DNA of 64,000 nucleotides from Pseudanabaena sp. PCC 7367 (GTDB lineage Bacteria > Cyanobacteriota > Cyanobacteriia > Pseudanabaenales > Pseudanabaenaceae): the NCBI RefSeq assembly GCF_000317065.1, contig NC_019690.1:186001-250000 (forward strand), read 5' to 3'. The position numbers and the translations under genes were made by a program. Positions 4,629 through 47,626 of the stretch are shown piece by piece (position 1 is the stretch's first letter; each line of letters starts with the position of its first letter). A model generated the notes under the pieces. The model saw only the letters and a program-made list of their open reading frames with translations, had not been told where the DNA came from and did no database searches.

Positions 4629-6698
4629 TTAGGAACTTAAAAATGTTGTGACATCGCGTGCGAATAAACTCTGCAGTCGCATAAGTTGTGCACCAGATAA
4701 ATAGAGTAAATCACCTTTGCCTAAGAGATTGACAGCATCAGTTTGTTTACCACCAAGCACAATCGCAGAATCAGCATCACTAGCAGTGCGTAGTGCCACC
4801 CGACCAGGAAGGTTAGAGCGGATTATCGGTGTAACTACCCTTGCTTCTGGGCGCTGAGTGGCAACAATCAAATGGATGCCTGCTGCCCTCGCCATTGCAC
4901 CTAATCGCTTAATACTGTGTTCTAATTCTATGCGTACTTCTTTCTCTGACATAAAGTCTGCATACTCATCAAAAATGCAGATGATGCGAGGTATTAACCG
5001 ATCGAAATGCTGTTGGTTATAGGTTCCAATCTCAGCACATTTTGCTATTTCAAATTTTTGGTAACGATTGTCCATTTCATCTACCAATTCCTGCATCAGT
5101 TCAACTGCGCGATCGCTATCTTTGACAACTGGCGAATACAGCCAGGGCATCCGCTCAAACTCTGGGAAGGTAACTCGTTTGGGATCGACGAGGGCAATTT
5201 TTAAAAGATCGGCACTATGGCGAACGGTCAAACTTAGCAGTAGCGATCGCAGAAATTCGCTTTTGCCACTGCCGGTTGTCCCGCCAACTAAAAAATGGCA
5301 GGTATTAGGATTAGATAAATCGGCTTCGACCAGTTTGCCTTCAAGATCAACACCAATGGCTATTTGACATGATCCTGTTGACTGTTCGTCTTCAGCATTA
5401 ACATATTGCTCAAAATAGGCTGTTTGGCGATCGGGGCGAGGGAGATCAACACTGACATAACCTGCCTGGGGCGAGATCAAAGGTGGATGATTTAAACCCA
5501 GTTGCACTCTTAAATCATCGGTTAGCCGCAAGATTGAATTAACTCTCACGCCAGCTTGAGGTTTTAATTTGATGCGAATAAAAGCAGGGGCGATCGCCGC
5601 ACCAACATATTCAACATCAGTACCAAAGGATTGCAAAGCCGCCACTAAATCTCGGCCGATCGCTGTAGCGTCGATACTACTTTCTGATCCTGTATCTGGT
5701 AGTCGTGGCGATCGCTTAGTTGTCTTTTGTTTCTGAGTGCGTTTTACTGAAGTCTTTGCGGTAACAGCTTTTTGCTTATCTGTAGTTACATTTATTGAAT
5801 CTGCAATCTGATCAGATTCCGGAGCTGGGAAAAAACTCTGGCATTTATTAAATTGGGGGCAGATGGGGCAGAGTAGATTTGGTTGTGAAGTAGGTGGGGG
5901 CGGCTCGGGTTTGCCTGGCTCCCACGCAAGCCAGGTTTGCATCTGGGCTAATCGGTCAGGAATTATTTTATGTACTGTCTCTTTTAGCTGCTGCCAGGAG
6001 AAAGTGATTTCCTGCCAATCTGGCATCACGCTGTACACAGCCGAATCAATCTGCAAACCAATTTTTTCACGCAGCATATAGCCATAAAGCGCTACCTGAG
6101 CTAATTGGGCAGATCGATCGATCGCCTGATATGTCTTATATTCGACCACACATAGGCGGTGCTTGGTAAAGTCATAAACCAGACTGTCAAATTTTCCCTT
6201 CACCAGTTGCGTTTTGCCATTAGGAAGTGTGAAAGTATGCTCCACACTCAATTCTTGAGCCAGAAAAGTAGATCTAATTACCTCATCGGCAGAACAGAAA
6301 CGGCGATTGTTGACTAGTAATTCCGCCCACCGCTGGATTAAGCCGATTAAACCTTGCCATAGTTGAAGCAATGCTGGGGCTTGGCTGGCATCATTGGCGA
6401 TCGCCTTTTCTAAGTATGGATAAAAAGCCTGTTCATAAAACAACTGCTGCATTTGCTCGGCAATAGTTCCTACCTCGAGGCGATCGGCTTCTGGCTTGAA
6501 TAAATCTTGAAAGCGACTGTCCTGTCTGGCGATGGTAGCAAATTGACTGGATAAATTGTGAAAAGCCCTGCCCAATCCGATTGTCTTTCCTGCTGGGACA
6601 AACATAGTCATGCCGCCAAATCTATGCCCCAGATAAAACAATCGCGGGCATTCGAACGCAAGCTTAACTTTAGTGACACTTAGCGATTCTGCCATCAT
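4629..6698 (-). CDS. Fusion of a PD-(D/E)XK nuclease with a Cys cluster to an FtsK/SpoIIIE-type DNA translocase
   Basis: This is a 689-residue protein. The N-terminal half is a RecB/Cas4-like PD-(D/E)XK nuclease with acidic D171 (VKGKFDSLVYD) and E186-x-K188 (VVEYKTYQ). One Cys near the N-terminus (C17) plus C277, C280 and C286 repeat the 1+3 spacing of the Fe-S cluster of AddB and Cas4 nucleases. A basic linker (about 300-335) leads to an FtsK beta-like segment (about 355-405) and an FtsK motor with Walker A GGTTGSGKS (472-480), DPKR (505-508), Walker B IICIFDEYAD (572-581) and ATQRP. There is no transmembrane region and no gamma DNA-reading domain, so it is not the cell-division FtsK. Its start overlaps the upstream ATPase stop by 4 nt (ATGA), which implies coupled translation. 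It likely acts as a DNA pump with a nuclease; the biological role is inferred. Confidence 0.9.
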   Translation of the reverse strand: MMAESLSVTKVKLAFECPRLFYLGHRFGGMTMFVPAGKTIGLGRAFHNLSSQFATIARQDSRFQDLFKPEADRLEVGTIAEQMQQLFYEQAFYPYLEKAIANDASQAPALLQLWQGLIGLIQRWAELLVNNRRFCSADEVIRSTFLAQELSVEHTFTLPNGKTQLVKGKFDSLVYDFTKHRLCVVEYKTYQAIDRSAQLAQVALYGYMLREKIGLQIDSAVYSVMPDWQEITFSWQQLKETVHKIIPDRLAQMQTWLAWEPGKPEPPPPTSQPNLLCPICPQFNKCQSFFPAPESDQIADSINVTTDKQKAVTAKTSVKRTQKQKTTKRSPRLPDTGSESSIDATAIGRDLVAALQSFGTDVEYVGAAIAPAFIRIKLKPQAGVRVNSILRLTDDLRVQLGLNHPPLISPQAGYVSVDLPRPDRQTAYFEQYVNAEDEQSTGSCQIAIGVDLEGKLVEADLSNPNTCHFLVGGTTGSGKSEFLRSLLLSLTVRHSADLLKIALVDPKRVTFPEFERMPWLYSPVVKDSDRAVELMQELVDEMDNRYQKFEIAKCAEIGTYNQQHFDRLIPRIICIFDEYADFMSEKEVRIELEHSIKRLGAMARAAGIHLIVATQRPEARVVTPIIRSNLPGRVALRTASDADSAIVLGGKQTDAVNLLGKGDLLYLSGAQLMRLQSLFARDVTTFLSS

Positions 6699-8737
6699 TT
6701 GTTATAACTAGGAACAAAACAAACTAGTTGTTCATTAATGGGTGCTTGTGGGTTGATAATCTTGATGATTTTTTCCTCCTTACCAAGCTGCTGTACCTTT
6801 TGCTCAATCTGTACTCTAGAAATTGCTTTGAACTCTTCCGATACTTTGCCGATCAGAGTAAGTCTGGCAAGCATGTGCTGAGTTTTCATGACATCTTGAA
6901 TATACTCATCAATTTCTTCCATTTTGGGTGTAGGTGATGGTGGGGGAATTGGAGGAGTTACTGTTTTTGGGGGGGGAACAGTCTTAGTTTTGGCTTTTTG
7001 ATTTAAACCGGATAACTGACTGGTCAACGAGCATTTTTCAAACACCTTAGATTGACGAATTAAATCTTGTAATTCTGGCAGCCCTATTAATTTATTCCCG
7101 ATCACTAAATCTCCGGCGAGGGAATCATTGAATAATTTGTAGTAGGTCGCAATGTAATGAATTGACTCCATATCCACTACGATGTGGGCATGGCGATCGC
7201 CAGTAAAAATTTTTTGATAGTGCTTATATCCTTTGGTATTTGGCCTGCCCAGCTTACTTGCCCTTAACAAATACAATCGCTGGCATTGATTTTTCTCGAT
7301 CGCCTTTTGGCAAGCATTCATAATGTGAAAAAAACTGGTCATATTCTGGTCTTCAGTCCATACTACGCCCATATTTCCTGGATTTTGGCTGGGCTGGAAG
7401 TGCAACGAATAATGGCTAAATTTAGTGCGCGACAGTAACGGGACCCTAACATTAGTCTCAAACAAAGTGCTCAAGACCTGTTGGAGCATGCGCACTAATT
7501 CTGGCGATGACTTTTGATTGGGTTTAGTAATCCTAGCGATCGTGTTTCTCAACTCATCTCGCCATAGGAGTTTAAATAGGGCTATATAGTCGGATTCTAC
7601 TGTCCCTCCATCGCACTTAATTTGATTGATTAATTCCCATCCCAGGCTCAAGGTTTGGCGAGGATATGTCTTGCCACCCGGAATGCGATCAACTAAATTT
7701 TTATGCTTGAGGGGAGCAATTCGTGATTTGGGGCGAGTTGGAATCTTACTATGTAGCGGAGCTAGGCGAGAAGCCCATAGATCCTCTGCTTGATCAAGAT
7801 TGATTGACTTTAGTTTAATGCCAGCATCAATTCTGGCTAAATCGGAAGCGTGAAGCTGCCTTTTGTTTTTTTCCCATGTTTCGCTTCGCAGACTAATAAT
7901 GATCAGAAAATTACGCCATGCTTCATTATGTATCGCAGAGTTGACATCAAATAAGGGTTGTAAAGATAACCCTTCAATTGCCCGCGCATTGCTTTCTAGT
8001 TGATCGAAACATAAAACAATTGGTTGGGTTTCATCGGCGATTTTGCCAAAGTTTGCTAAATATTTCCACGCTTCATTTTCCGATTTGATCGATTCTTTCA
8101 AACCTAATTCTTTGAGAGCTGCTTCGCTGATGTCGTCGCCTTTTAACCATTCGCAAGCAGCATCATAGGTTTCGGCATTAGTCAGGTCATACAAAACACT
8201 AAAGAATAAATCAGCATTGTAAACGCCTTTATGTTTGTATCTGTCCTTTAGTTTCTTAACAAATTTCTTTCTCTGGCTCAGAAACAGCTCGCCAATATCA
8301 GTAGTTAGCAGCTCTGTAATATTTTTTTCCTTGAAGACAGAAAGTCCCTTTAACCAGAGCATTAGCTGAGATTCTTGTTTGCCCTCAGGCGGCAGGATCA
8401 GGCTATCAACGGTATAGCGCAGAATATGTTTTCTAATCGCATCACTTTGGGGATAAGGTTCAATGTAGGCAAAGAATGCCTTTTGATTGAGGGTTTGCTT
8501 TACCCGTGATAAAAAATGAGTTTTCCCAGAACCACTTGCACCTTTGATCACGATCGTGCGACTTTGACCATCAGCGATAACCTGATCCAGCACTTTCTCC
8601 GTTTCTAAAAGTTCATCAGCATGAATCGAACTAACATTATGCTCAGGATCAAATTCTGCTCTGGTAAAGTTTTTAGCATGACCATGTTTATCAAAAGGAT
8701 TTACTTCACTTTTAATCACATCAATAATTGACTTCAT
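6695..8737 (-). CDS. AAA/STAND-like P-loop ATPase with C-terminal winged helix, partner of the nuclease-FtsK fusion
   Basis: ATG 8737 is chosen because a GGTGGG element lies about 7 nt upstream. A GTG at 8779 would add 14 residues but has no binding site. With the ATG start (680 residues), Walker A GASGSGKT is near 66-73 and Walker B PIVLCFDQLE near 239-248, as in ORC/Cdc6-like or STAND ATPases that bind a partner protein or DNA. After a Pro-rich hinge (PPPKTVTPPIPPPSPTPK), the last ~70 residues look like a winged helix. It lies 50 nt after the winged-helix gene and overlaps the nuclease-FtsK gene by 4 nt, so the three are one operon. I cannot match it to a named defence family. Confidence 0.85.
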   Translation of the reverse strand: MKSIIDVIKSEVNPFDKHGHAKNFTRAEFDPEHNVSSIHADELLETEKVLDQVIADGQSRTIVIKGASGSGKTHFLSRVKQTLNQKAFFAYIEPYPQSDAIRKHILRYTVDSLILPPEGKQESQLMLWLKGLSVFKEKNITELLTTDIGELFLSQRKKFVKKLKDRYKHKGVYNADLFFSVLYDLTNAETYDAACEWLKGDDISEAALKELGLKESIKSENEAWKYLANFGKIADETQPIVLCFDQLESNARAIEGLSLQPLFDVNSAIHNEAWRNFLIIISLRSETWEKNKRQLHASDLARIDAGIKLKSINLDQAEDLWASRLAPLHSKIPTRPKSRIAPLKHKNLVDRIPGGKTYPRQTLSLGWELINQIKCDGGTVESDYIALFKLLWRDELRNTIARITKPNQKSSPELVRMLQQVLSTLFETNVRVPLLSRTKFSHYSLHFQPSQNPGNMGVVWTEDQNMTSFFHIMNACQKAIEKNQCQRLYLLRASKLGRPNTKGYKHYQKIFTGDRHAHIVVDMESIHYIATYYKLFNDSLAGDLVIGNKLIGLPELQDLIRQSKVFEKCSLTSQLSGLNQKAKTKTVPPPKTVTPPIPPPSPTPKMEEIDEYIQDVMKTQHMLARLTLIGKVSEEFKAISRVQIEQKVQQLGKEEKIIKIINPQAPINEQLVCFVPSYNK

Positions 8738-8787
8738 TTTTGCCCACCCACCTTGCTGTTCTCCATTGAAATGCTGCACTGAATCTG

Positions 8788-9588
8788 CTAGTTAACGATC
8801 GCAAAAAATAATGGATGCGTGCCGAAAGAATCGTAAATCGCGGCGTTAATTTGTGCGCTGGTATAATCTTTAGGTTCCGCTAGTGGCTCAAGCTCGATCG
8901 CATCTTTTTTTTGTAATCGAAATAAGGCATGATCCAGTTCTTCTCTGGACAGACGATCCTTTAAATAATCTCTCAAGTAGAAGAGAGGTAAAAAATTATC
9001 GGTGTTGTGCTTACGATCTAATTGCTTGATTGCTTCTAAAACGTCGCTATCACCAGGAGTTGAGGACTGAGTAGTGGGCTGAGTAGTGGCTGTAGCAGCC
9101 TGTGATTTTTCTGGCAACGCAGCGGATGTTGATTTTCGTAGCGATTGAAAATATTCGTTTATTTGTTCTAAGCATTGCCTGCCCTTAGTGGTGATCCAAA
9201 CCTTGGGACTGATAGCACACATCTTGTCTTGGAATTTAATCAAGCCACGATCGCCCAAAGCTTGTAAAATTTCGTTTCTTTTAGCGACATTGATTTTCTT
9301 GATTCTGATTTTGCTAGGCTCTAAGGCTCCTGGAGCCCTTTCTATTCTGGCCAGCACCTTTATTTCTTGATCTGAAATTGGCAATTGCGATGCATCAAAA
9401 CTGAGCAGTGCTTTCCCGGCAGGTGCTATTTCTACCTTGCGATCGAAATCTACTAGATCGTCATCACCAAGCGATTGAAACACTTTTTTAGCAAGAGTTA
9501 TGCCTTCTTTCCTGAAGCTTACTCCGGGAGAGACCTTGCCTTGATAGGTTGATAATTTCAGAAGAAACTGTAAGTCTTGATATTTCAT
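8788..9588 (-). CDS. Unassigned protein with tandem winged-helix-like domains, first gene of the operon
   Basis: This 266-residue protein seems built of three winged-helix-like units (about 1-70, 78-145 and 185-266). They are joined by a low-complexity linker rich in T, Q and S (about 150-180). The pattern LARIERA...KRNEILQALGDRGLIKF is typical of a wHTH with a recognition helix and wing. It may bind DNA at its own promoter or serve as an adaptor for the ATPase next to it. No catalytic motif is visible. The gene is first in a minus-strand operon, with a palindromic site about 100 bases upstream. Confidence 0.75.
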   Translation of the reverse strand: MKYQDLQFLLKLSTYQGKVSPGVSFRKEGITLAKKVFQSLGDDDLVDFDRKVEIAPAGKALLSFDASQLPISDQEIKVLARIERAPGALEPSKIRIKKINVAKRNEILQALGDRGLIKFQDKMCAISPKVWITTKGRQCLEQINEYFQSLRKSTSAALPEKSQAATATTQPTTQSSTPGDSDVLEAIKQLDRKHNTDNFLPLFYLRDYLKDRLSREELDHALFRLQKKDAIELEPLAEPKDYTSAQINAAIYDSFGTHPLFFAIVN

Positions 9589-10196: not shown

Positions 10197-10251
10197 CATT
10201 TGCATAAATTGATCTAAACTTTTCTAGTTGCCATTCCCAACCTGTTGCGCC

Positions 10252-13200
10252 ATGAAAATTATTCACGGTACCTGGATTCCTCAACCTGAGTCGGAGTTTA
10301 TTCAAACTGGGGCATTTTATGTGTGGGTAGAAACAGATACTTTACCAAAAAAACACAAAAAACAAGCTAGCGATCGCCACCCTTATCAGTTAACAAGCGA
10401 GTATCTGGCGGATTTTCTCAGGCAGGAAATAGGCGTTAAAGTATCTATTTTTCAGCGTGACGATCAAACTACCGCTACTAAATATTTCCTTCTGCCCAGT
10501 GCCAACAATAAACCATTACCTTCACCAGAACTGAGCCGCTATCTAGAAACAGAACCCCTCGAAGCAACTGGCTGGCAGTCCTGGGCGATCGATTGTTGTT
10601 CGATTGTCAACGTAATTAAATTCCTCAATGATCTGCATTTTCTCTGTTTACATCAAGCCGACCAGATGCAATTGGGGTCAGATTTATTTTTCTGGTATCA
10701 CTACACCCAAGCCTTCCAGCAGGTTATTCTCAAAGATCAATATATTCCGGCGCTGAAATATCATGAGTTGCCGCAACCAAAAGGGAAAAGGAAGAAAGCT
10801 ACTCCTAATTGGCAGATTTATCCCACCTGGGAAATTATTTCCGAAGCCTATGAAGCAGATTTGCAATCCTATCTGGACTATATGCCTTTGGTTTGTGTGG
10901 CAGGGCGAGCGAATGGAAATCATCACAATGGGGCGATCGCAGTTTATGACAAAGAAACCTTACTGCGCCACTTTTCCGAAGCACTGCTACATAATCTGGT
11001 CACCAACACACCCATTCCTGGCACTTTTGCGAAAAAGTTGGGCAATTCGCTGCTGCCTGGCGATTGTTTAAATGTTCGCCCCAAACCCTGGCAGGGCAAT
11101 AATGATTACCTGGAAACCTATCAACAGTGGCAAGTCTGGCGACAAAAGATCGTGGGCTGGCAAAATGATGCTACTTTTCATCTTTGCTTCCAACTGAAAG
11201 AAGCGGCTACTGAACACACTGACGATTGGCAGATTCGCTTTCTGGTATCGCTCAAGCAAGACCCATCGCTAAGAATAGAACTGGATGATTACTGGTATCT
11301 GGGCACAAAACCCAAACGCGAATTTCTTAAACAGTTTGGCAAGGACTTTGAAAGACAACTTCTGCTGAGTCTGGGCTATGCGGCGCGCATGTATGCCAAG
11401 ATTTGGCAGGGCTTGGAAACCGACAAACCCTCTGGCTTTCGCCTTACTCTCAGCGAAGCTTTTACCTTCTTGTCTGAAAGTGCCTGGGTATTAGAAGATG
11501 CTGGGTTTAAGGTGATTGTGCCTGCCTGGTGGACACCCAAGGGACGACAGCGAGCCAAAATCAAACTCAAAGCTGGGGCTAAACAATCTGCGCCCTCAAA
11601 AACTAGTAAAGGCTATTTTCAACTAGATACGATTATTCAATATCAGTATGAACTGGCGATCGGCGATCGCTCCATTACTGAGCAAGAGTGGCAGCAACTG
11701 GTTAATGCCAAAACGCCCCTGGTGAAGTTTCGGGGCGAGTGGATGCAACTGGATCAAAGCCAGATGAAGCAGATGTTAGAGTTCTGGCAAAAACACCACG
11801 ATCAGTCACCGGAAATGAGTTTGCTGGATTTACTGCAAAAAGCGGCTGACGCTGACGCTGGTTTTGAAATTGATCCAGATCAAACCCTGGCGAAGATGAT
11901 GGCTAAGTTACATGACCCCAGCCAGATTCAGCCGATCGGCAAGCTACCCAAATTACAGGGTACGTTGCGGGAATATCAAAAGCGCGGGGTTTCCTGGCTG
12001 CAATATTTAGAACAATTGGGTTTGAATGGTTGTCTCGCCGATGATATGGGCTTAGGTAAAACGGTGCAGGTAATCGCGCGGCTGGTGGCGGAGCGTGAAA
12101 CTAGCTCAAAATCAAAGTCGAAATCTAAAGCTAAGTCAAAATCACAACCCGCACCGACAATTTTGATTGTGCCAACTTCTGTAATTGGTAACTGGCATAA
12201 GGAAATTAATAAGTTTGCGCCGCATTTGCGGGTATTGATTCACCACGGTGGCGATCGCCTGCAAGATGAAGCAGACTTCCAAGCTGCCTGTACCAAACAT
12301 GACGTGGTGATTACTTCATTTACCCTGGCGCGCAAAGATGCCAAGCTATTCAATACAATTACCTGGCAACGGATTGTGCTGGATGAAGCCCAAAATATCA
12401 AAAATCCCAAAGCTGCCCAAACCAAAGCAATTTTAAAAATGCAAGCTAAGCACCGTCTGGCTTTGACTGGGACTCCGGTAGAAAATCGTCTGCTTGATTT
12501 GTGGTCAATTTTTAACTTTCTTAATCCTGGCTATTTGGGGCGCGAAGCCCAGTTTCGCAAGGGCTTTGAAATCCCGATCCAGAAAGAGAATAATCAGGTG
12601 CAAGCAACCACACTTAAAAAATTGGTGCAGCCGTTGATTTTGCGCCGCGTCAAGACCGATAAGCAAATTATTAAGGATTTACCCGATAAGCTCGAACATA
12701 AGCAATATTGCAATCTCACCAAGGAACAGGCTTCTTTATATGAAGCGGTGGTCAAAGATGTGACCGAGCAACTGGAAGCAGCAGAAGGGATTCAGCGCAA
12801 GGGTTTGATTCTGTCTACCCTGACCAAACTAAAGCAGATTTGTAATCATCCGCGTCAGTTTTTGCAGGATGGCAGTGAGTTTACGGCGGAGCGATCGGCA
12901 AAGTTGCAGCGCTTAGGCGAAATGCTGGAAGAGATTTTTGCTGAAGGTGAGAGCCTATTGATTTTCACCCAGTTCACGGAAATTGGCACAGCTTTGATTC
13001 AACACCTCAAACATACTTTGCACTGTAATACATATTTCCTGCATGGTGGCACTTCCCGCCCCAAAAGAGAACAAATGATTGGTGAGTTTCAAGATCCTGA
13101 AACCGAACCCTCGGCGTTTGTGCTCTCACTCAAAGCTGGGGGCGTGGGCATTACGCTTACCAAAGCCAATCATGTATTTCATTTCGATCGCTGGTGGAAT

Positions 13201-13434
13201 CCGGCAGTAGAAGACCAGGCAACCGATCGCGCTTTTCGGATTGGCCAAAAGAAAAATGTGTTTGTGCATAAGTTCGTCACGATTGGCACCCTGGAAGAAC
13301 GAATTGATCAGATGATTGAAGATAAGAAAAAAATGGCCGGGGCGATCGTTGGTGCTGATGAATCCTGGCTGACTGAACTGGACAATGAAAGCTTTAAACA
13401 GCTAATTACCCTGAGCAAACAGGCAGTCATTTAA
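10252..13434 (+). CDS. SNF2-family DEAD/DEAH-box ATPase (bacterial Swi2/Snf2 type)
   Basis: This is a 1060-residue helicase-like ATPase. The N-terminal ~570 residues form the region typical of bacterial SNF2 proteins that pair with SWIM proteins. The motor follows: motif I DDMGLGKT near residue 600, motif II DEAQ near 711, motif III LTGTPVENR, motif V LKAGGVGITLT and motif VI QATDRAFRIGQ near 990. A Lys/Ser-rich insert (SKSKSKSKAKSKS) lies just after motif Ia. ATG 10252 is chosen because the protein then begins MKIIHGTWIP, as usual for the family; the upstream TTG at 10228 is unlikely. It translocates on double-stranded DNA and likely remodels protein-DNA complexes. The SWIM protein encoded downstream is the usual partner. 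Confidence 0.93.
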   Translation: MKIIHGTWIPQPESEFIQTGAFYVWVETDTLPKKHKKQASDRHPYQLTSEYLADFLRQEIGVKVSIFQRDDQTTATKYFLLPSANNKPLPSPELSRYLETEPLEATGWQSWAIDCCSIVNVIKFLNDLHFLCLHQADQMQLGSDLFFWYHYTQAFQQVILKDQYIPALKYHELPQPKGKRKKATPNWQIYPTWEIISEAYEADLQSYLDYMPLVCVAGRANGNHHNGAIAVYDKETLLRHFSEALLHNLVTNTPIPGTFAKKLGNSLLPGDCLNVRPKPWQGNNDYLETYQQWQVWRQKIVGWQNDATFHLCFQLKEAATEHTDDWQIRFLVSLKQDPSLRIELDDYWYLGTKPKREFLKQFGKDFERQLLLSLGYAARMYAKIWQGLETDKPSGFRLTLSEAFTFLSESAWVLEDAGFKVIVPAWWTPKGRQRAKIKLKAGAKQSAPSKTSKGYFQLDTIIQYQYELAIGDRSITEQEWQQLVNAKTPLVKFRGEWMQLDQSQMKQMLEFWQKHHDQSPEMSLLDLLQKAADADAGFEIDPDQTLAKMMAKLHDPSQIQPIGKLPKLQGTLREYQKRGVSWLQYLEQLGLNGCLADDMGLGKTVQVIARLVAERETSSKSKSKSKAKSKSQPAPTILIVPTSVIGNWHKEINKFAPHLRVLIHHGGDRLQDEADFQAACTKHDVVITSFTLARKDAKLFNTITWQRIVLDEAQNIKNPKAAQTKAILKMQAKHRLALTGTPVENRLLDLWSIFNFLNPGYLGREAQFRKGFEIPIQKENNQVQATTLKKLVQPLILRRVKTDKQIIKDLPDKLEHKQYCNLTKEQASLYEAVVKDVTEQLEAAEGIQRKGLILSTLTKLKQICNHPRQFLQDGSEFTAERSAKLQRLGEMLEEIFAEGESLLIFTQFTEIGTALIQHLKHTLHCNTYFLHGGTSRPKREQMIGEFQDPETEPSAFVLSLKAGGVGITLTKANHVFHFDRWWNPAVEDQATDRAFRIGQKKNVFVHKFVTIGTLEERIDQMIEDKKKMAGAIVGADESWLTELDNESFKQLITLSKQAVI

Positions 13435-13471
13435 TTTAGATATTTAGATATTTAGATATTTAGATATTTCA
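13434..13471. repeat. Short tandem repeat, about 3.5 copies of a 10-mer
   Basis: The 10-base unit atttagatat is repeated in the gap between the SNF2 and SWIM genes. It begins at the last base of the SNF2 stop codon. Repeat number probably varies between strains. Confidence 0.6.
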
Positions 13472-13549
13472 ATATTGAACACCATTGAACCAAACACATC
13501 TTTCGCAATCACTCAGCAACTCAATCGGCAATCGGCACAAATATCAACT

Positions 13550-14389
13550 ATGGCACAATTTAGCAAAACCTGGTGGGGCAAGCGATTTATCGAAGCGCTG
13601 GAAGAATTTACCGATCCGGCGCGGCTAGGGCGTGGCCGTTCCTATGCGCGTAATGACAAAATTAAGGAATACCGCATCAAAGATGGGCAAGTTGTAGCGA
13701 AGGTGAGAGGTTCGATCAATCCCTATTTTGGCGTGTATAAGGAACCGCTGTATACAACCAAGATTGAAATCAAGCCCATTTCCGCGACAAGCTGGTCAAA
13801 AGCGATCGCCCTGCTCAGTTCCAGAGCCAGTTGGGTAACCAAACTATTAATGAATGAAATGCCCGATGATATTGACGAAGCCCTTGACAGCCTCAAGATT
13901 AATTTACTCCCCCATCGTCGTAGTGACTTTAAAACCAGTTGTTCCTGTCCTGATTATTCCAATCCTTGCAAGCACATCGCTGGAGTCCATTATTTAATTG
14001 CGGCACAGCTTGATCAAGATCCGTTTATTTTATTTGAACTGCGTGGACTGCCACGTCACCAACTTCAACAAGAACTGGCTAAATCTCCCCTTGGCAAAGC
14101 CCTTGCCGATATGTTCAACGATCAAGACTTGGCGATCGAACCTGCTAATGCTTATTATCCTGAACCGAAGGAAGTCTCACCACCGAAACAATCTTCAGTG
14201 CATGACTTTTGGCTAGGCGAAAAGCGCCTACCTCAGACGATCGAACCCGTTACTGAATCTAGCATTCCAGCGATCGTAGTTAAAAAAGGCGGTGACCATC
14301 CCCAATTCTGGCATCAAGATCGCTCTTTCATTGAAGTAATGGAAGAATTATATGCACGAGTACGAGCCAATAGTAAAAAGATGCTTTGA
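13550..14389 (+). CDS. SWIM zinc-finger protein, partner of the SNF2 ATPase
   Basis: This 279-residue protein carries a SWIM zinc finger, C-x-C-x(7)-C-x-H (CSCPDYSNPCKHIAG, near residues 131-143). SWIM fingers bind DNA or proteins and pair with SNF2 ATPases in bacteria. ATG 13550 is chosen because homologues begin M-A-Q-F-S-x-T-W-W-G; the TTG at 13475 would add 25 untypical residues. The stop codon TGA is the last part of the 6-bp target duplication of the IS21 element that follows directly. The protein therefore keeps its full length although the element is inserted at its last codon. Confidence 0.88.
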   Translation: MAQFSKTWWGKRFIEALEEFTDPARLGRGRSYARNDKIKEYRIKDGQVVAKVRGSINPYFGVYKEPLYTTKIEIKPISATSWSKAIALLSSRASWVTKLLMNEMPDDIDEALDSLKINLLPHRRSDFKTSCSCPDYSNPCKHIAGVHYLIAAQLDQDPFILFELRGLPRHQLQQELAKSPLGKALADMFNDQDLAIEPANAYYPEPKEVSPPKQSSVHDFWLGEKRLPQTIEPVTESSIPAIVVKKGGDHPQFWHQDRSFIEVMEELYARVRANSKKML

Positions 14390-14540: not shown

Positions 14541-15311
14541 TTATTTTTGCGAGCGCTCAACAGCGTTGCGTTTACGGAAACTATCAGCATGAATTTCAAC
14601 AATGAGAGCATGATGAATGAGGCGGTCAACGGCAGCAACAGTCATCATGTCATCGGCAAAGATGTGATCCCATTGCGAGAAAGGCTGATTAGCAGTAATG
14701 ATGAGGCTTTTGCGTTCATAACGATGAGCAATCAGCTCAAACAGGACGGAAGTTTCAGCCTCAGATTTTTTGACATAGCCAAGATCATCAATAATGAGTA
14801 AATCAAAGCGGTCAAGTTTGGCAAGGATAGAGGCAAGCTGAAGTTGTAGTTTGGCTTGCTGTAGATGTTGTAGCAAAGCATAGGCCGAGAAGAACTTAAC
14901 CCGTTTGCCCATTTCAATCATCGAGCGCCCGAGCGCAGCAGCAAGATGAGTTTTACCGACCCCGGAAGGTCCAAATAGCAAGCAGTTTTCGGCCCTATCC
15001 AACCAGGCCGTATCTTGTGCCAGTTGGATCAGTGGCGCTGATTTGAAACTAGGGCAATGTTCAAAATCGAAAGAGGTAAAGCTTTTACCAGTAGGTAATT
15101 TAGCCTCAGCGAGAGCTCGTTTGATCCGATTCTGTTGGCGATAATCCAGTTCCAATTCGCACAGAGCGAGCAAGAACCGGTCGTAAGCCCAATGCTGTTG
15201 GGTGGCCTTCTGCTCGATAGTCTGCCAATGTTGGAGCATGTGCGAGAGTCGTAGCTGTTTGAGTATCAGGCTCAGAGTATTGTTCGGGTTTGGTTTCGAG
15301 GAGTTGGTCAT
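14541..15311 (-). CDS. istB: IS21-family ATPase (transposition helper)
   Basis: This 256-residue AAA+ ATPase resembles DnaC. Walker A GPSGVGKTH and Walker B LLIIDDLGYV are both intact. IstB forms an oligomer on DNA and stimulates the IstA transposase. The ORF start matches the family N-terminus (LILKQLRLSHMLQHW). It overlaps istA by 206 bases in another frame, far more than the few bases usual in IS21 elements. Confidence 0.93.
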   Translation of the reverse strand: MTNSSKPNPNNTLSLILKQLRLSHMLQHWQTIEQKATQQHWAYDRFLLALCELELDYRQQNRIKRALAEAKLPTGKSFTSFDFEHCPSFKSAPLIQLAQDTAWLDRAENCLLFGPSGVGKTHLAAALGRSMIEMGKRVKFFSAYALLQHLQQAKLQLQLASILAKLDRFDLLIIDDLGYVKKSEAETSVLFELIAHRYERKSLIITANQPFSQWDHIFADDMMTVAAVDRLIHHALIVEIHADSFRKRNAVERSQK

Positions 15312-16794
15312 AGGCTGAAAGCGAATGTTGTTGTACGTTTAGTTGAGGTACGCTCAATTGCTGCTGGGGTAGTAGGAACTGTTGCTGTAGAGCCTTCAGG
15401 CTGAGAGTGCCCTGCTGCAGTTGGGTTTCAAGATAGTCGGCCACTGTAGTTTCTCTATCGTGCTTGGCAGCAATATAGAGGGCTTCAACCATGATGCGCG
15501 CTGCATTATCGATTTCAAAATCAGCCTGTAACCTCTGCCACAGCTGCCGCCATTGTTGATTAGGCAATAGGTCTTGCTGCCAGGTGCAGTAAATAAAGGC
15601 ACGGGGTTTACGCCTGAGGCTATCAATTACATGGCGGTAGTTAATACAGCGAGCACGGCGGATTTTGGCTGACCCATGTACTCGCAAACGGGGTAGTTCC
15701 ACCACTTGTTGCTGCCCCAAATAACCGACCAGGCGGTTGTGATAGATATGAATATTCAGCTGCCTGCCAATCAGTCTTGATGGCACCGTGTAAAGAATGC
15801 AGCGCACCGAAATGGTGCTGTGGCAGGTCACCCGCACCGTCAATTCTTCGTAATCGGCACAGCGATATCTCGGTAGTGGTTGTAGGGTTACTTTTTCCTC
15901 GGCAAACTTGGCGCTGCATTTACAATTGAGCTTGGCAACCACCTGCTCGATAAATTCTTGATATGCACTCACTGACTCAAACTCAAAGCTGCCACGCAAA
16001 TACAGAGCTTGGCGCAACCGGCGCTTGAAATGTCCATGGGGAGATTCGATGGAGCCATTTTCATGAGCCACGCCTGGGTTATTGCGACTTGGACTCATGC
16101 CATAGTGTTCACATAGCTCGGCATAGAATTGGGTTAGTGGTTTATGCCGTTTGCCCGCCATATTCCGATAGGCAGCACTCAAATTATCGGTGCGATGCTG
16201 CTTTGGTACACCACCACAGGCATGCAGCGCATTCTGTAATCCTTCAGACAAGCCGATAAAGCTCTCGCCACCCTCGATTACCTGCACATATTGCCAGCCA
16301 CTGTAGGCCAGACGGTAGTGGTACAGCAGGTGCTCATATTGTTTCCCTTTGATGGTAACTTCCACCTGTTTGAGCTCGGTAAAATCTGATAGACCCATTT
16401 CGCCGGGCTGATGGCGGATCTCAAACATTACCTCCTGCGGTTTGCCATGGATACTTTTCCATACCTGCACTCGCCTTTGTAAGGTACGCAATTGTTGCTC
16501 ATATTGGCCTGGATAATGCTCGGCTAGATATTCATACAATGTCATCGCCTCTAGACGAGGCTCACGTCGAAGCATTGGCTCTAGCTCTTCCTCCCACACT
16601 CCTGATAGCGGATCTCGGCGGGTGCGCCAATCTCGCTCACCTTTACTCTTGGGCTGGTGTTTGCCTTGCTCAATACGGCTGCCGCTACGGACTGATATGC
16701 CGGCAATCTCGGCTGACTCATTTTGATTGCAGCCGACCTCTCGTGCTTTCTTGTACACTTGCACTTGATATTGTTTTATATATTGACCTGACAC
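15106..16794 (-). CDS. istA: IS21-family DDE transposase
   Basis: This 562-residue transposase has an N-terminal helix-turn-helix (QNESAEIAGISVRSGSRIEQ) and an rve-type DDE core. The likely catalytic residues are D in GLSDF, D in HRTDN and E in NGSIESPHG. After the region where family similarity usually ends (near SAYDQLLE), about 70 residues are read from DNA that also encodes the IstB N-terminus. The extension probably results from loss of the normal stop. The ATG lies 173 bases from the right element end. Confidence 0.92.
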   Translation of the reverse strand: MSGQYIKQYQVQVYKKAREVGCNQNESAEIAGISVRSGSRIEQGKHQPKSKGERDWRTRRDPLSGVWEEELEPMLRREPRLEAMTLYEYLAEHYPGQYEQQLRTLQRRVQVWKSIHGKPQEVMFEIRHQPGEMGLSDFTELKQVEVTIKGKQYEHLLYHYRLAYSGWQYVQVIEGGESFIGLSEGLQNALHACGGVPKQHRTDNLSAAYRNMAGKRHKPLTQFYAELCEHYGMSPSRNNPGVAHENGSIESPHGHFKRRLRQALYLRGSFEFESVSAYQEFIEQVVAKLNCKCSAKFAEEKVTLQPLPRYRCADYEELTVRVTCHSTISVRCILYTVPSRLIGRQLNIHIYHNRLVGYLGQQQVVELPRLRVHGSAKIRRARCINYRHVIDSLRRKPRAFIYCTWQQDLLPNQQWRQLWQRLQADFEIDNAARIMVEALYIAAKHDRETTVADYLETQLQQGTLSLKALQQQFLLPQQQLSVPQLNVQQHSLSAYDQLLETKPEQYSEPDTQTATTLAHAPTLADYRAEGHPTALGLRPVLARSVRIGTGLSPTESDQTSSR

Positions 16795-21957: not shown

Positions 21958-22608
21958 CTACTTTGTCAAATCAGGTGCATCTTTCAAATCCTCATCGGCC
22001 AGATCCTCAAAATCAATATTTTCATATAGCAGTGAGAGGGGAAACTCCAGATTAAGGCTAAAAATATGAATTAAGGGATCGGCTGCTGATGCTTCAATCG
22101 TGGTGGATGAATATTCCCAGGTGCGATCGCGTCGCTGGTAAACTTCAATCCTGGGTTGCTCTGGGTTAATTAGGATATAGGTTTGTAAGGTATCGAGCAG
22201 CATATAGGTTTGTTGCTTGATGCCGCGATCGCGGGCTTCGGCAGCAGGCGATAGTACCTCGGCCACCAGACAAGGATATTGCCAGAAATCACGGGCAAAC
22301 CGATCGCGTTGATCGCAGGTGACCACAATGTCTGGATAGTAGTATTTCCCAGCTTTGATCATGACCTTGGCATCACTAACTGCAACCTTGCAGTTTTTAC
22401 CACGTAAATGCGGGATCAGCAGGGCGGCGAAATTAGTAGCAACCTGGCTATGGGGAATGGTGCCCCCGGTCATGGCGATAATCTTGCCGTTCTCATATTC
22501 ATATTTGAATTCTTGATTGGCTTCCCAGGTCAGATATGCTGCTGGCGACATGGTGGGTAAGTCGCTCTGTATCTCTTTATGGGCATCACCTTGGGCTTGG
22601 CTAATCAT
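21958..22608 (-). CDS. Uma2-family (DUF820) putative endonuclease
   Basis: This 216-residue Uma2-type protein belongs to the PD-(D/E)XK superfamily. The core shows E in YEYENGKIIAMTGG, the PDIVV motif and VAEVLSPAAEARDR followed by K of GIKQQTY. Such genes are greatly expanded in cyanobacteria and their role is unknown. It is convergent with the 1143-residue gene, 11 bases apart. A second, more divergent copy lies at 46.9 kb. Confidence 0.88.
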   Translation of the reverse strand: MISQAQGDAHKEIQSDLPTMSPAAYLTWEANQEFKYEYENGKIIAMTGGTIPHSQVATNFAALLIPHLRGKNCKVAVSDAKVMIKAGKYYYPDIVVTCDQRDRFARDFWQYPCLVAEVLSPAAEARDRGIKQQTYMLLDTLQTYILINPEQPRIEVYQRRDRTWEYSSTTIEASAADPLIHIFSLNLEFPLSLLYENIDFEDLADEDLKDAPDLTK

Positions 22609-28032: not shown

Positions 28033-29079
28033 ATGTTTTCAAGATTAGAACTTGATAACTTTGGTATTTTTAACCAATTTGTGTGGGAGAACCATACCAG
28101 AATTAATATCTTAATTGGCAAAAATGATACCGGTAAAAGCTATCTACTTAAAATCCTTTATGCACTTGCAAAGAGTATAGAAGATCATAATAAACAAGCA
28201 CAGCCAGATTCCTTACAGAAAGACCTAAGAACTCTGCTGGCAGATAAACTAATTTGGACATTTCAACCCGAGAAAGGATTAGGTCAATTAGTTACAAAGG
28301 GGCAAAGTAGATTAAATGTAGAAGCTCGTATATGCAAAGAAAATTATCACTTTTCTTTCGGGCGTGACACCAATCGTCAAATCAAAGATATTTCTAATTT
28401 TGTTCTACCTTCAGATAACTTGGGAGCGATTTTTATTCCTCCTAAAGAAGTGCTGACAGCTTTTGAAGCGATCGCCGCAGTACGCGAGCAGCTTGAAATT
28501 TTTGGCTTTGACGATACATACTATGACCTGATTACCGCCCTACGTTTACCAACTACTCAAGGCAGAATCCAAAAAGATTTAAAGGAAGTTCTGGACAGTC
28601 TTGAACAGCTCTTCAGTGGTGAGATTGTCCGTGAAGATAAGCAGTTTGTGCTGAAGCGAGGTAGAGAAAAGTTTGGCATGTTTCAGGTGGCTGAAGGTGT
28701 TAAAAAAATTGGCGTTCTTACTACCCTTATTCGTAATCGCGTTCTTCAAAAGGGAACTATCTTATTTATAGATGAGCCCGAAAATAATCTGCATCCTGAA
28801 GCGATCGTGACGCTTTGCAAAATGCTGTTTAGTCTCAGTAAAGCAGGAATTCAAATTTACCTCGCTACCCATAGCTATTTTGTGATTCAGCAGTTTGAAC
28901 TAATTGCGCGTCATCATAATGAAGAAATTCAGATTTGCTCTTTAGTGAAACAAGATGAAACAGAAAATACAATCACACCGGAATTCCAAGATTTACGCCA
29001 GGGAATTCCTGATAATCCAATTATTGATGTTTCTATTAAGCTGTATGAGGAGGATGTGAGATTGGAGTTAGAAGTGTAG
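28033..29079 (+). CDS. AAA/ABC-type ATPase (AAA_15/21-like), first gene of a two-gene unit
   Basis: A 348-residue SMC/OLD-like ATPase without Toprim. Walker A is GKNDTGKS (near 29-36) with the N-terminal FSRLELDNFGIF start typical of AAA_15/AAA_21. Walker B is ILFIDEPENNLHPEA, and the H-loop is ATHSYF. The middle region is helical and short. It is followed after 2 bases by a gene with a D...E-x-K motif, so the two form one unit. ATPase plus nuclease pairs like this are common in phage defence (for example Septu), but I cannot match this pair to a named type. Confidence 0.88.
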   Translation: MFSRLELDNFGIFNQFVWENHTRINILIGKNDTGKSYLLKILYALAKSIEDHNKQAQPDSLQKDLRTLLADKLIWTFQPEKGLGQLVTKGQSRLNVEARICKENYHFSFGRDTNRQIKDISNFVLPSDNLGAIFIPPKEVLTAFEAIAAVREQLEIFGFDDTYYDLITALRLPTTQGRIQKDLKEVLDSLEQLFSGEIVREDKQFVLKRGREKFGMFQVAEGVKKIGVLTTLIRNRVLQKGTILFIDEPENNLHPEAIVTLCKMLFSLSKAGIQIYLATHSYFVIQQFELIARHHNEEIQICSLVKQDETENTITPEFQDLRQGIPDNPIIDVSIKLYEEDVRLELEV

Positions 29080-29081
29080 AT

Positions 29082-29609
29082 ATGCCAGATTACCAGGAAA
29101 GTGGCTTAAATATTTCACTACCCAATAATCAATGCTTTCGCTTTTGTGATTTGAACACATATAAAGGGCTTAAGGGGAAGCAGCTAAAAGAAGTTGATTT
29201 TTGCTGGTGGGATTCAAGTCGTAATACATTCTGGCTTTTGGAAGTAAAGGATTACAGTCACTTGACAAGTATTGAAAAGTTACCTGACCATCTGCTAGAA
29301 AATCTTACTAATAAAATAACGGATTCCTTACTTATACTCGGTGCTGCCTGGAGTGGCACAAATAAAGGTCAAAACATACTTCATGAATTACCATCAACTT
29401 TCCGAATCTTTCCTATGACACCGCATAAGATGAAGATAGTATGCATACTTAAGCTCACTGAACATCATAAAAAAGTTTATCTTAAGCCACTAAAAGATAA
29501 TTTGAATAATCGACTGGCTGGCAGAGTTGCGCTATTTGATTTACAACGTGTCACTTTAATTGATCACGGCACAGCATCAACAATGGGGTTACCAATTACT
29601 TCTATGTAA
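29082..29609 (+). CDS. Putative PD-(D/E)XK-like effector paired with the ATPase
   Basis: This 175-residue protein has EVDFCWWD followed by FWLLEVKDY, a D-x(n)-E-x-K arrangement as in PD-(D/E)XK nucleases. The helical region after it (IEKLPDHLLENLTNKITDSLL) fits the core helix. No other domain is recognised. It starts 2 bases after the ATPase stop, so translation is coupled. A nuclease effector switched by the ATPase is a reasonable inference; the catalytic residues are read from the sequence only. Confidence 0.65.
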   Translation: MPDYQESGLNISLPNNQCFRFCDLNTYKGLKGKQLKEVDFCWWDSSRNTFWLLEVKDYSHLTSIEKLPDHLLENLTNKITDSLLILGAAWSGTNKGQNILHELPSTFRIFPMTPHKMKIVCILKLTEHHKKVYLKPLKDNLNNRLAGRVALFDLQRVTLIDHGTASTMGLPITSM

Positions 29610-46930: not shown

Positions 46931-47626
46931 ATGGCTGCTCCTGACCTGAGCAAACAGTCAATTCAAACGCTGCCTCTAGAAAATGGTGATCGGCTCTCTC
47001 GCAATGAGTTCGAACGTCGCTATAGTGCTATGCCTCACATCAAAAAAGCCGAGCTAGTTGCCGGAATAGTTTATATGGCCTCACCTCTGAGAATTGATCG
47101 CCATGGTTATCCGCATACCATCATCATGACCTGGCTGGGCACATATCAAATCGCTACACCAGGATTGATCGCCGGTGATAATGCAACGGTGCGATTGGAT
47201 CATGATAACGAGTTGCAGCCTGATGGTTTGCTGATGATTATCACTGACGGACAGGCCAGCATTAGCACCGATGGCTATGTGGAAGGAGCGCCAGAATTAA
47301 TCGTCGAAGTGGCGGCTAGCAGTGCTTCGATCGATCTGCATAACAAGCTAGAAATTTATCGCCACAATCGGGTGCAGGAATATTTAGTCTGGCGGGTGTA
47401 TGAAAAGGAATTTGATTGGTTCCGGTTGCAAAACGAGGCATATAAACAGATGCCAGCAGATGAGGCAGGAATTGTTCAATCCGAGGTGTTCCCTGGGCTG
47501 TGGTTGGCCAAAGAGGCTTTACTGAGTGGCAACTTTGCGAAGGTGCTGGAGGTATTGCAACAAGGGCTAGCAACATCGGTACATCAGGATTTTGTAGGCC
47601 AACTCCAACTAACTCAGACTCAGTAG
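46931..47626 (+). CDS. Uma2-family (DUF820) putative endonuclease
   Basis: A 231-residue Uma2 protein. The core contains KKAELVAGIVYMASPL, a region with LQPDGLLMI, and APELIVEVAASSASIDLHNK, giving the E...D...E-x-V and K positions of the PD-(D/E)XK fold. It has a C-terminal extension of about 40 residues. Function unknown; probably the end of the chromosomal segment before the capsid module. Confidence 0.85.
   Translation: MAAPDLSKQSIQTLPLENGDRLSRNEFERRYSAMPHIKKAELVAGIVYMASPLRIDRHGYPHTIIMTWLGTYQIATPGLIAGDNATVRLDHDNELQPDGLLMIITDGQASISTDGYVEGAPELIVEVAASSASIDLHNKLEIYRHNRVQEYLVWRVYEKEFDWFRLQNEAYKQMPADEAGIVQSEVFPGLWLAKEALLSGNFAKVLEVLQQGLATSVHQDFVGQLQLTQTQ

What the first reader, a model, noticed from the sequence alone, without database searches (positions are those of the whole stretch)
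4629..9588. Three-gene operon: winged-helix protein, AAA ATPase and nuclease-FtsK fusion, a possible undescribed DNA-processing or defence system
The sequence shows three tightly packed minus-strand genes (50-base gap by the chosen start, then 4-base overlap). The last joins a PD-(D/E)XK nuclease (D171, E186, K188) to an FtsK motor (Walker A 472-480); the second is a P-loop ATPase with a C-terminal winged helix; the first has tandem wHTH-like units. Known: FtsK-HerA ATPases paired with nucleases (for example HerA-NurA) process DNA ends and occur in defence islands. Inference: the wHTH protein recognises DNA, the AAA ATPase recruits or loads, and the pump-nuclease degrades foreign DNA. I could not match the set to BREX, DISARM, Wadjet, Zorya or Dpd.
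Basis: partly seen in the sequence, partly recalled or inferred. Interest (0 to 1): 0.8.

Follow-up and report, generated by a model that had tools for sequence, protein, structure and literature searches.

The report
Cyanobacterial DNA-pump-and-nuclease operon
Three neighbouring genes encode a DNA-binding protein, an origin-recognition-like loader ATPase and a DNA pump fused to a DNA-cutting enzyme; the set is conserved in many cyanobacteria and fits a class of anti-invader systems that has been predicted in print but, as far as found here, never tested.

Summary
In detail: 4629-9588 (-) is a real, tightly packed A-B-C operon. A (8788-9588) is modelled as three winged helices. B (6695-8737/8779) is an ORC/Cdc6-type AAA+ ATPase with an alpha/beta insert and a C-terminal winged helix. 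C (4629-6698) joins a Cas4/AddB-like PD-(D/E)XK nuclease with four invariant cysteines to an FtsK alpha+motor; most relatives also carry an N-terminal DEDDy 3'-5' exonuclease, which the window copy lacks. The trio is contiguous in 52 of 77 related loci. In a 292-genome sample of the phylum all 27 genomes with C also have A and B, even where C is unlinked. Catalytic residues are almost perfectly conserved. It is patchy, chromosomal, not in defence islands, and absent from the plasmid, phage and viral collections searched, so a defence role is plausible but unproven. Apparently new here: the cyanobacterial distribution, the Fe-S-type nuclease fusion, swapping of B's AAA+ part and winged helix while C stays conserved, and that C is the only strong FtsK-type motor in its genome.

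The parts
8788..9588 (-). Gene A, 266 aa: triple winged-helix protein; no Pfam, NCBIfam or PADLOC family
   Evidence: no significant family. AF2 model pLDDT 85.3 with three wHTH units, about 3-61, 73-156 and 180-265. Aligned relatives.
6695..8779 (-). Gene B, 680-694 aa (conserved ATG at 8737): ORC/Cdc6-like AAA+ ATPase with alpha/beta insert and C-terminal winged helix
   Evidence: AF2 pLDDT 89.6, pTM 0.90. Best structural matches ORC/Cdc6 and TnsC, Z up to 15.4, 240 residues at 3.3 A. Walker A K 100/100 and Walker B D 98/100 conserved.
7100..7588 (-). Insert in B (about residues 398-560) between AAA+ core and winged helix; helix-strand-strand-helix-strand order, candidate inactive REase-like domain
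   Evidence: Secondary structure of the AF2 model. No (D/E)xK at the expected strand in the consensus. Fold not confirmed separately.
6714..6922 (-). C-terminal winged helix of B (about residues 620-688), the most variable part
   Evidence: AF2 model. In 9 of 57 close pairs it is under 70% identical while the AAA+ start is at least 90% and the insert at least 85%.
5799..6698 (-). N-terminal nuclease of C: PD-(D/E)XK, Cas4/AddB-like, with CX2CX5C plus C17
   Evidence: PDDEXK_1 3.2e-11; PADLOC Cas4 5.2e-7. D171/E186/K188 in 61 of 62 and all four Cys in 62 of 62 sequences.
4629..5681 (-). FtsK part of C: FtsK alpha domain plus motor (Walker A 472-480, DEYAD Walker B), no recognised gamma domain
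   Evidence: FtsK_alpha 4.2e-8, FtsK_SpoIIIE 6e-37. PDB FtsK 2iuu 7.8e-46.

Best explanation
The operon is a member of the predicted Orc/CDC6-type 'HerA/FtsK capture' anti-invader systems. Proposed working: A (triple winged helix) and B (ORC/Cdc6-like AAA+ with a variable C-terminal winged helix) recognise a DNA feature or nucleoprotein of an invading or replicating element. B, in its ATP state, assembles there and loads C. C forms an FtsK-like ring that pumps double-stranded DNA past its own Cas4-like nuclease (and, in most relatives, a 3'-5' exonuclease), which degrades it. Shown by sequence and model: domain identities, conserved catalytic residues, operon conservation, co-retention, and exchange of B alleles. 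Inferred: ring assembly, loading, DNA degradation and the anti-invader purpose.
For: Parts match the published description. A-B-C is contiguous in 52 of 77 loci. All 27 of 292 sampled genomes with C have A and B, including G051/G233 and G101 where C lies elsewhere in the genome. Nuclease and DEDDy residues are nearly invariant; in the one sequence where the fused nuclease has decayed (L064), an intact nuclease gene sits just upstream of A. B is ORC/Cdc6-like. Distribution is patchy: in the window's own family only G297 has a second strong C, and G294 keeps a fragment. In G149, B is 53% identical to its close relative's while gyrB is 98% and C 90%, and one clade is rejected with AU p 9e-5. B's winged helix diverges abruptly between some close relatives.
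Against: No function has been tested in any paper found. The trio is not in defence islands: in many Nostocales it sits at a fixed place among housekeeping genes, and few of 94 neighbours match PADLOC. It is absent from the plasmid, phage and viral-contig collections, so mobility is not obvious. Inheritance largely follows gyrB (rank correlation 0.77-0.86).
Confidence: 0.6

Rival explanations
1. A host DNA-maintenance machine: an ORC-like loader and FtsK pump-nuclease that processes broken ends or surplus chromosome copies in polyploid cyanobacteria, standing in for missing FtsK and RecBCD/AddAB.
For: The window's genome has no other strong FtsK and no RecB above cut-off. Most sampled cyanobacteria have no strong FtsK-type hit. 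Stable chromosomal location in Nostocales.
Against: Only 27 of 292 sampled genomes have C, so it cannot be a general housekeeping function. The motor groups with plasmid/mobile FtsKs rather than cellular FtsK. B is swapped between alleles. Partial losses are seen (L060, L066, L069).
Confidence: 0.25
2. A remnant of a mobile element's own replication or transfer machinery (initiator-like B, pump C) now fixed in the chromosome.
For: The ORC/TnsC-like AAA+; the FtsK motor groups with cyanobacterial plasmid FtsKs; the source paper argues for capture from mobile elements.
Against: No integrase, relaxase or transposase family recurs as a neighbour among the clustered families. No copy on plasmids or viruses. 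Conserved nuclease residues argue for active degradation.
Confidence: 0.1
3. Chance neighbours with no joint function.
For: Some genomes have A-B or B alone.
Against: Contiguity in 52 of 77 loci, C never found without A and B in the sample, and retention after unlinking.
Confidence: 0.02

Closest known systems
Orc/CDC6-type 'HerA/FtsK capture' systems (PMC10853773, section 22; a prediction)
   Same: Orc/CDC6 ATPase with a domain inserted before a C-terminal wHTH, an active PD-(D/E)XK nuclease, FtsK with FtsK-alpha, a separate multi-wHTH gene, and in some a 3'-5' exonuclease fused to the motor.
   Different: The paper's text names neither cyanobacteria nor a RecB/Cas4-type Fe-S nuclease. Its Figure 7 and supplements could not be seen, so this exact arrangement may already be drawn there.
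DndFGH / SspFGH (DptFGH)
   Same: A nuclease plus FtsK/HerA motor in one protein, an ATPase partner, and a multi-wHTH partner.
   Different: DndH/SspH are about 1700 aa with further N-terminal domains. The SspH match of C covers only the motor, and E. coli FtsK gives a similar match. The FtsK domains form separate groups.
HerA-NurA and HerA-nuclease defence complexes (from general knowledge)
   Same: A hexameric DNA pump coupled to a nuclease.
   Different: C is FtsK-type with an alpha domain, nuclease and motor are one polypeptide, and there is an ORC-like partner.
Cellular FtsK/SpoIIIE
   Same: Alpha and motor domains.
   Different: No recognised gamma domain; fused to a nuclease; separate group in the tree.

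Membership tests
Orc/CDC6-type HerA/FtsK capture systems | ORC/Cdc6-family AAA+ ATPase | tested here: met
   Top structural matches are ORC/Cdc6 (Z 15.4, 240 residues, 3.3 A), with TnsC close behind; Walker A and B conserved.
Orc/CDC6-type HerA/FtsK capture systems | Inactive REase inserted between the AAA+ core and the C-terminal wHTH | tested here: inconclusive
   An alpha/beta domain of compatible topology lies there and lacks a (D/E)xK motif, but it was not folded or searched alone.
Orc/CDC6-type HerA/FtsK capture systems | Active REase | tested here: met
   PDDEXK_1 domain with D171/E186/K188 in 61 of 62 sequences; activity itself not assayed. Which of the paper's two nuclease families it is could not be checked.
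Orc/CDC6-type HerA/FtsK capture systems | HerA/FtsK motor, in one set with FtsK-alpha | tested here: met
   PF01580 6e-37 and PF17854 4.2e-8.
[quoted passage not shown]
   Three wHTH units modelled; the fold searches gave only generic wHTH matches, so kinship to DndG/SspB is not shown.
Orc/CDC6-type HerA/FtsK capture systems | 3'-5' exonuclease fused to the motor (optional, in some) | tested here: inconclusive
   Absent from the window copy but present in 55 of 62 relatives with an intact DEDDy set; the description makes it optional.
DndFGH/SspFGH | DndH/SspH-type large protein with its N-terminal domains | tested here: not met
   C is 689 aa and matches only the motor end of the SspH models; true SspH relatives match over full length.
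Cellular FtsK | Groups with cellular FtsK | tested here: not met
   The trio forms its own group (93/90) next to cyanobacterial plasmid/mobile FtsKs; E. coli, Listeria and Collinsella FtsK form another.
Anti-phage or anti-plasmid defence | Protects against an invader | not testable with these tools
   Needs a bench assay.

The most novel reading that the evidence does not exclude
A chromosomal cyanobacterial DNA-shredding pump whose specificity is set by an ORC-like loader with exchangeable modules (AAA+ part and winged helix), while the nuclease-pump stays constant, in a phylum that mostly lacks a cellular FtsK; recognition would load a translocating nuclease on replication or partition complexes of invaders.
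Probability: 0.3. Interest if true: 0.65.

Novelty: new member of a known kind. Interest (0 to 1): 0.42.

Why it matters
The class was predicted from sequence and, in the papers found here, has no reported experiment. This cyanobacterial branch is compact (three genes), recurs in filamentous genera such as Nostoc and Anabaena, and has clear catalytic residues to mutate, so it offers a direct test of whether an ORC-like ATPase can load a nuclease-pump on foreign DNA. The swapping of B's modules points to where specificity would lie.

Tried and rejected
Ssp/Dpt identity: rejected, because the SspH match is only the FtsK motor and E. coli FtsK gives a similar one. PADLOC, Pfam and NCBIfam for A and B: nothing specific. 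PDB sequence search for B: nothing. Plasmid, phage and viral-contig searches for B, and viral for C: no close relative. Plasmid hits of C are FtsK motors only, and the plasmid neighbourhood inspected has no A or B. Defence-island test: a few matches among 94 neighbours (TnpB, one type IIG enzyme, PDC-S03), no enrichment evident, but no formal control was run. Fold searches of A returned only generic winged-helix proteins. Two literature searches for a named cyanobacterial version found none. The 2004 FtsK-HerA survey could not be read. The query covered the motor half of C only, not the nuclease half.

Full report
Observation. The three ORFs are as described: C 4629-6698, B 6695-8779 (relatives support the ATG at 8737) and A 8788-9588, all minus strand, with a 4-base B/C overlap and a 50-base A/B gap by the conserved start.

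Anatomy. C carries PDDEXK_1, FtsK_alpha and FtsK_SpoIIIE and four invariant cysteines in the Cas4/AddB pattern; an Fe-S cluster is inferred from this pattern, not shown. Most relatives add an N-terminal 3'-5' exonuclease (DNA_pol_A_exo1) with the full DEDDy set in 55 of 55; the window copy and six other entries of the 62 lack it. B is modelled with high confidence (pLDDT 89.6, pTM 0.90) as AAA+ core, alpha/beta insert and C-terminal winged helix; ORC/Cdc6 and TnsC are its best structural matches. A is modelled as three winged helices; its fold matches are generic.

Conservation as a unit. A search of 84,980 species genomes with B returned 77 loci, nearly all titled as cyanobacteria (one record, L105, is labelled Tatlockia and may be misbinned); only the best 80 of 209 relatives were kept, so more distant ones outside the phylum are not excluded. 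A-B-C is contiguous in 52 of the 77, with other loci A-B, A-B-B or cut by contig ends. In 292 sampled genomes of the phylum, strong B occurs in 33, A in 33 and the C nuclease in 27; every C genome has A and B. In G051, G233 and G101, C is unlinked from A-B yet retained; G051 and G233 are near relatives, so this is perhaps two events. Partial loss is also seen: L060 keeps only the exonuclease piece of C, and L066 and L069 keep only B.

Evolution. Distances of A, B and C follow each other after removing gyrB (partial correlations 0.45-0.69). G149 has a typical gyrB (98%) and C (90%) but a foreign-looking B (53%) compared with G245; keeping its B with its relatives is rejected, AU p 9e-5. For C, the gyrB neighbours G159 and G172 are also separated (p 8e-4). 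Both groups were chosen after seeing trees, so these p values are indicative. The C-terminal winged helix of B is under 70% identical in 9 of 57 pairs that are otherwise at least 85-90% identical; these pairs involve few lineages, so they represent few independent events. The motor of C forms one group (93/90), near cyanobacterial plasmid and mobile FtsKs and apart from cellular FtsK and SspH; support for that wider placement is moderate (94/88).

Context. The window genome has no other strong FtsK, and only 43 of 292 sampled genomes have a PF01580 match at 1e-8, most of them this C; a review notes that among studied cyanobacteria an FtsK homologue was identified only in Anabaena (PMC7766704). 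The neighbours are not evidently defence-rich. No close copy lies on plasmids, phages or viral contigs.

Comparison with what is known. PMC10853773 describes neighbourhoods of an Orc/CDC6 ATPase with an inserted inactive REase and C-terminal wHTH, an active REase, a HerA/FtsK (one set with FtsK-alpha), in a subset a multi-wHTH gene, and in some a 3'-5' exonuclease fused to the motor, and argues for an anti-invader role. PMC12839542 restates the capture model. The trio meets the ATPase, nuclease and motor criteria; the inactive-REase and DndG-kinship criteria are inconclusive. It is therefore filed as a new member of a known, untested kind. It is not DndFGH/SspFGH.

Mechanism. Most likely A and B recognise and mark DNA, B loads C, and C pumps and degrades it. 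Recognition by the variable winged helix of B is suggested by its exchange; loading and degradation are inferred from family knowledge. The main rival is a host maintenance role, weakened by patchiness.

Noticed in passing
window 28033-29609 (+): A HEC-02-like pair of candidate defence genes: 28033-29079 matches HEC-02A (3.5e-125) and 29082-29609 matches HEC-02B (3.9e-71).
   Followed up: partly
window 21958-22608 (-) and 46931-47626 (+): Two proteins matching PADLOC candidate family PDC-S03 (1.4e-25 and 5e-16); two of 94 trio-neighbour proteins elsewhere also match it.
   Followed up: no
window 14541-16794 (-): IS21-type pair (transposase-like 562 aa and IstB-like ATPase 256 aa, judged by eye) close to the operon.
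   Followed up: no
window 10228-14389 (+): SNF2 helicase related to the sll1366/SCO1167 families followed by a SWIM zinc-finger protein, divergent from the trio; probably unrelated.
   Followed up: partly
L045, L046, L047, L049: Distant cousins: an A-like gene, a B-like ATPase and a third gene with DUF1802 plus (weak) Mrr-type nuclease in place of C, suggesting the A-B module pairs with different nucleases.
   Followed up: partly
L075, L077, L078, L088, L092, L095, L111, L116, L117, L122: A-B-B tandems with two intact B ATPases that differ consistently in Walker A (GETGSGK versus GDSGSGK); in some genomes followed by a full A-B-C.
   Followed up: partly
L064:6925-14873: C with exonuclease, inserted protein kinase, decayed nuclease and motor, while an intact stand-alone nuclease gene lies upstream of A.
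   Followed up: yes
L044:7874-10207: A distant B relative fused to an RNase_T-type exonuclease domain.
   Followed up: no
whole phylum sample: Only 43 of 292 sampled cyanobacterial genomes have a strong FtsK-type motor at all; 27 of those carry this operon's C.
   Followed up: partly
L187:8716-9222: A 168-aa fragment of the C motor in a genome of the window's own family, likely a remnant of a lost copy.
   Followed up: partly
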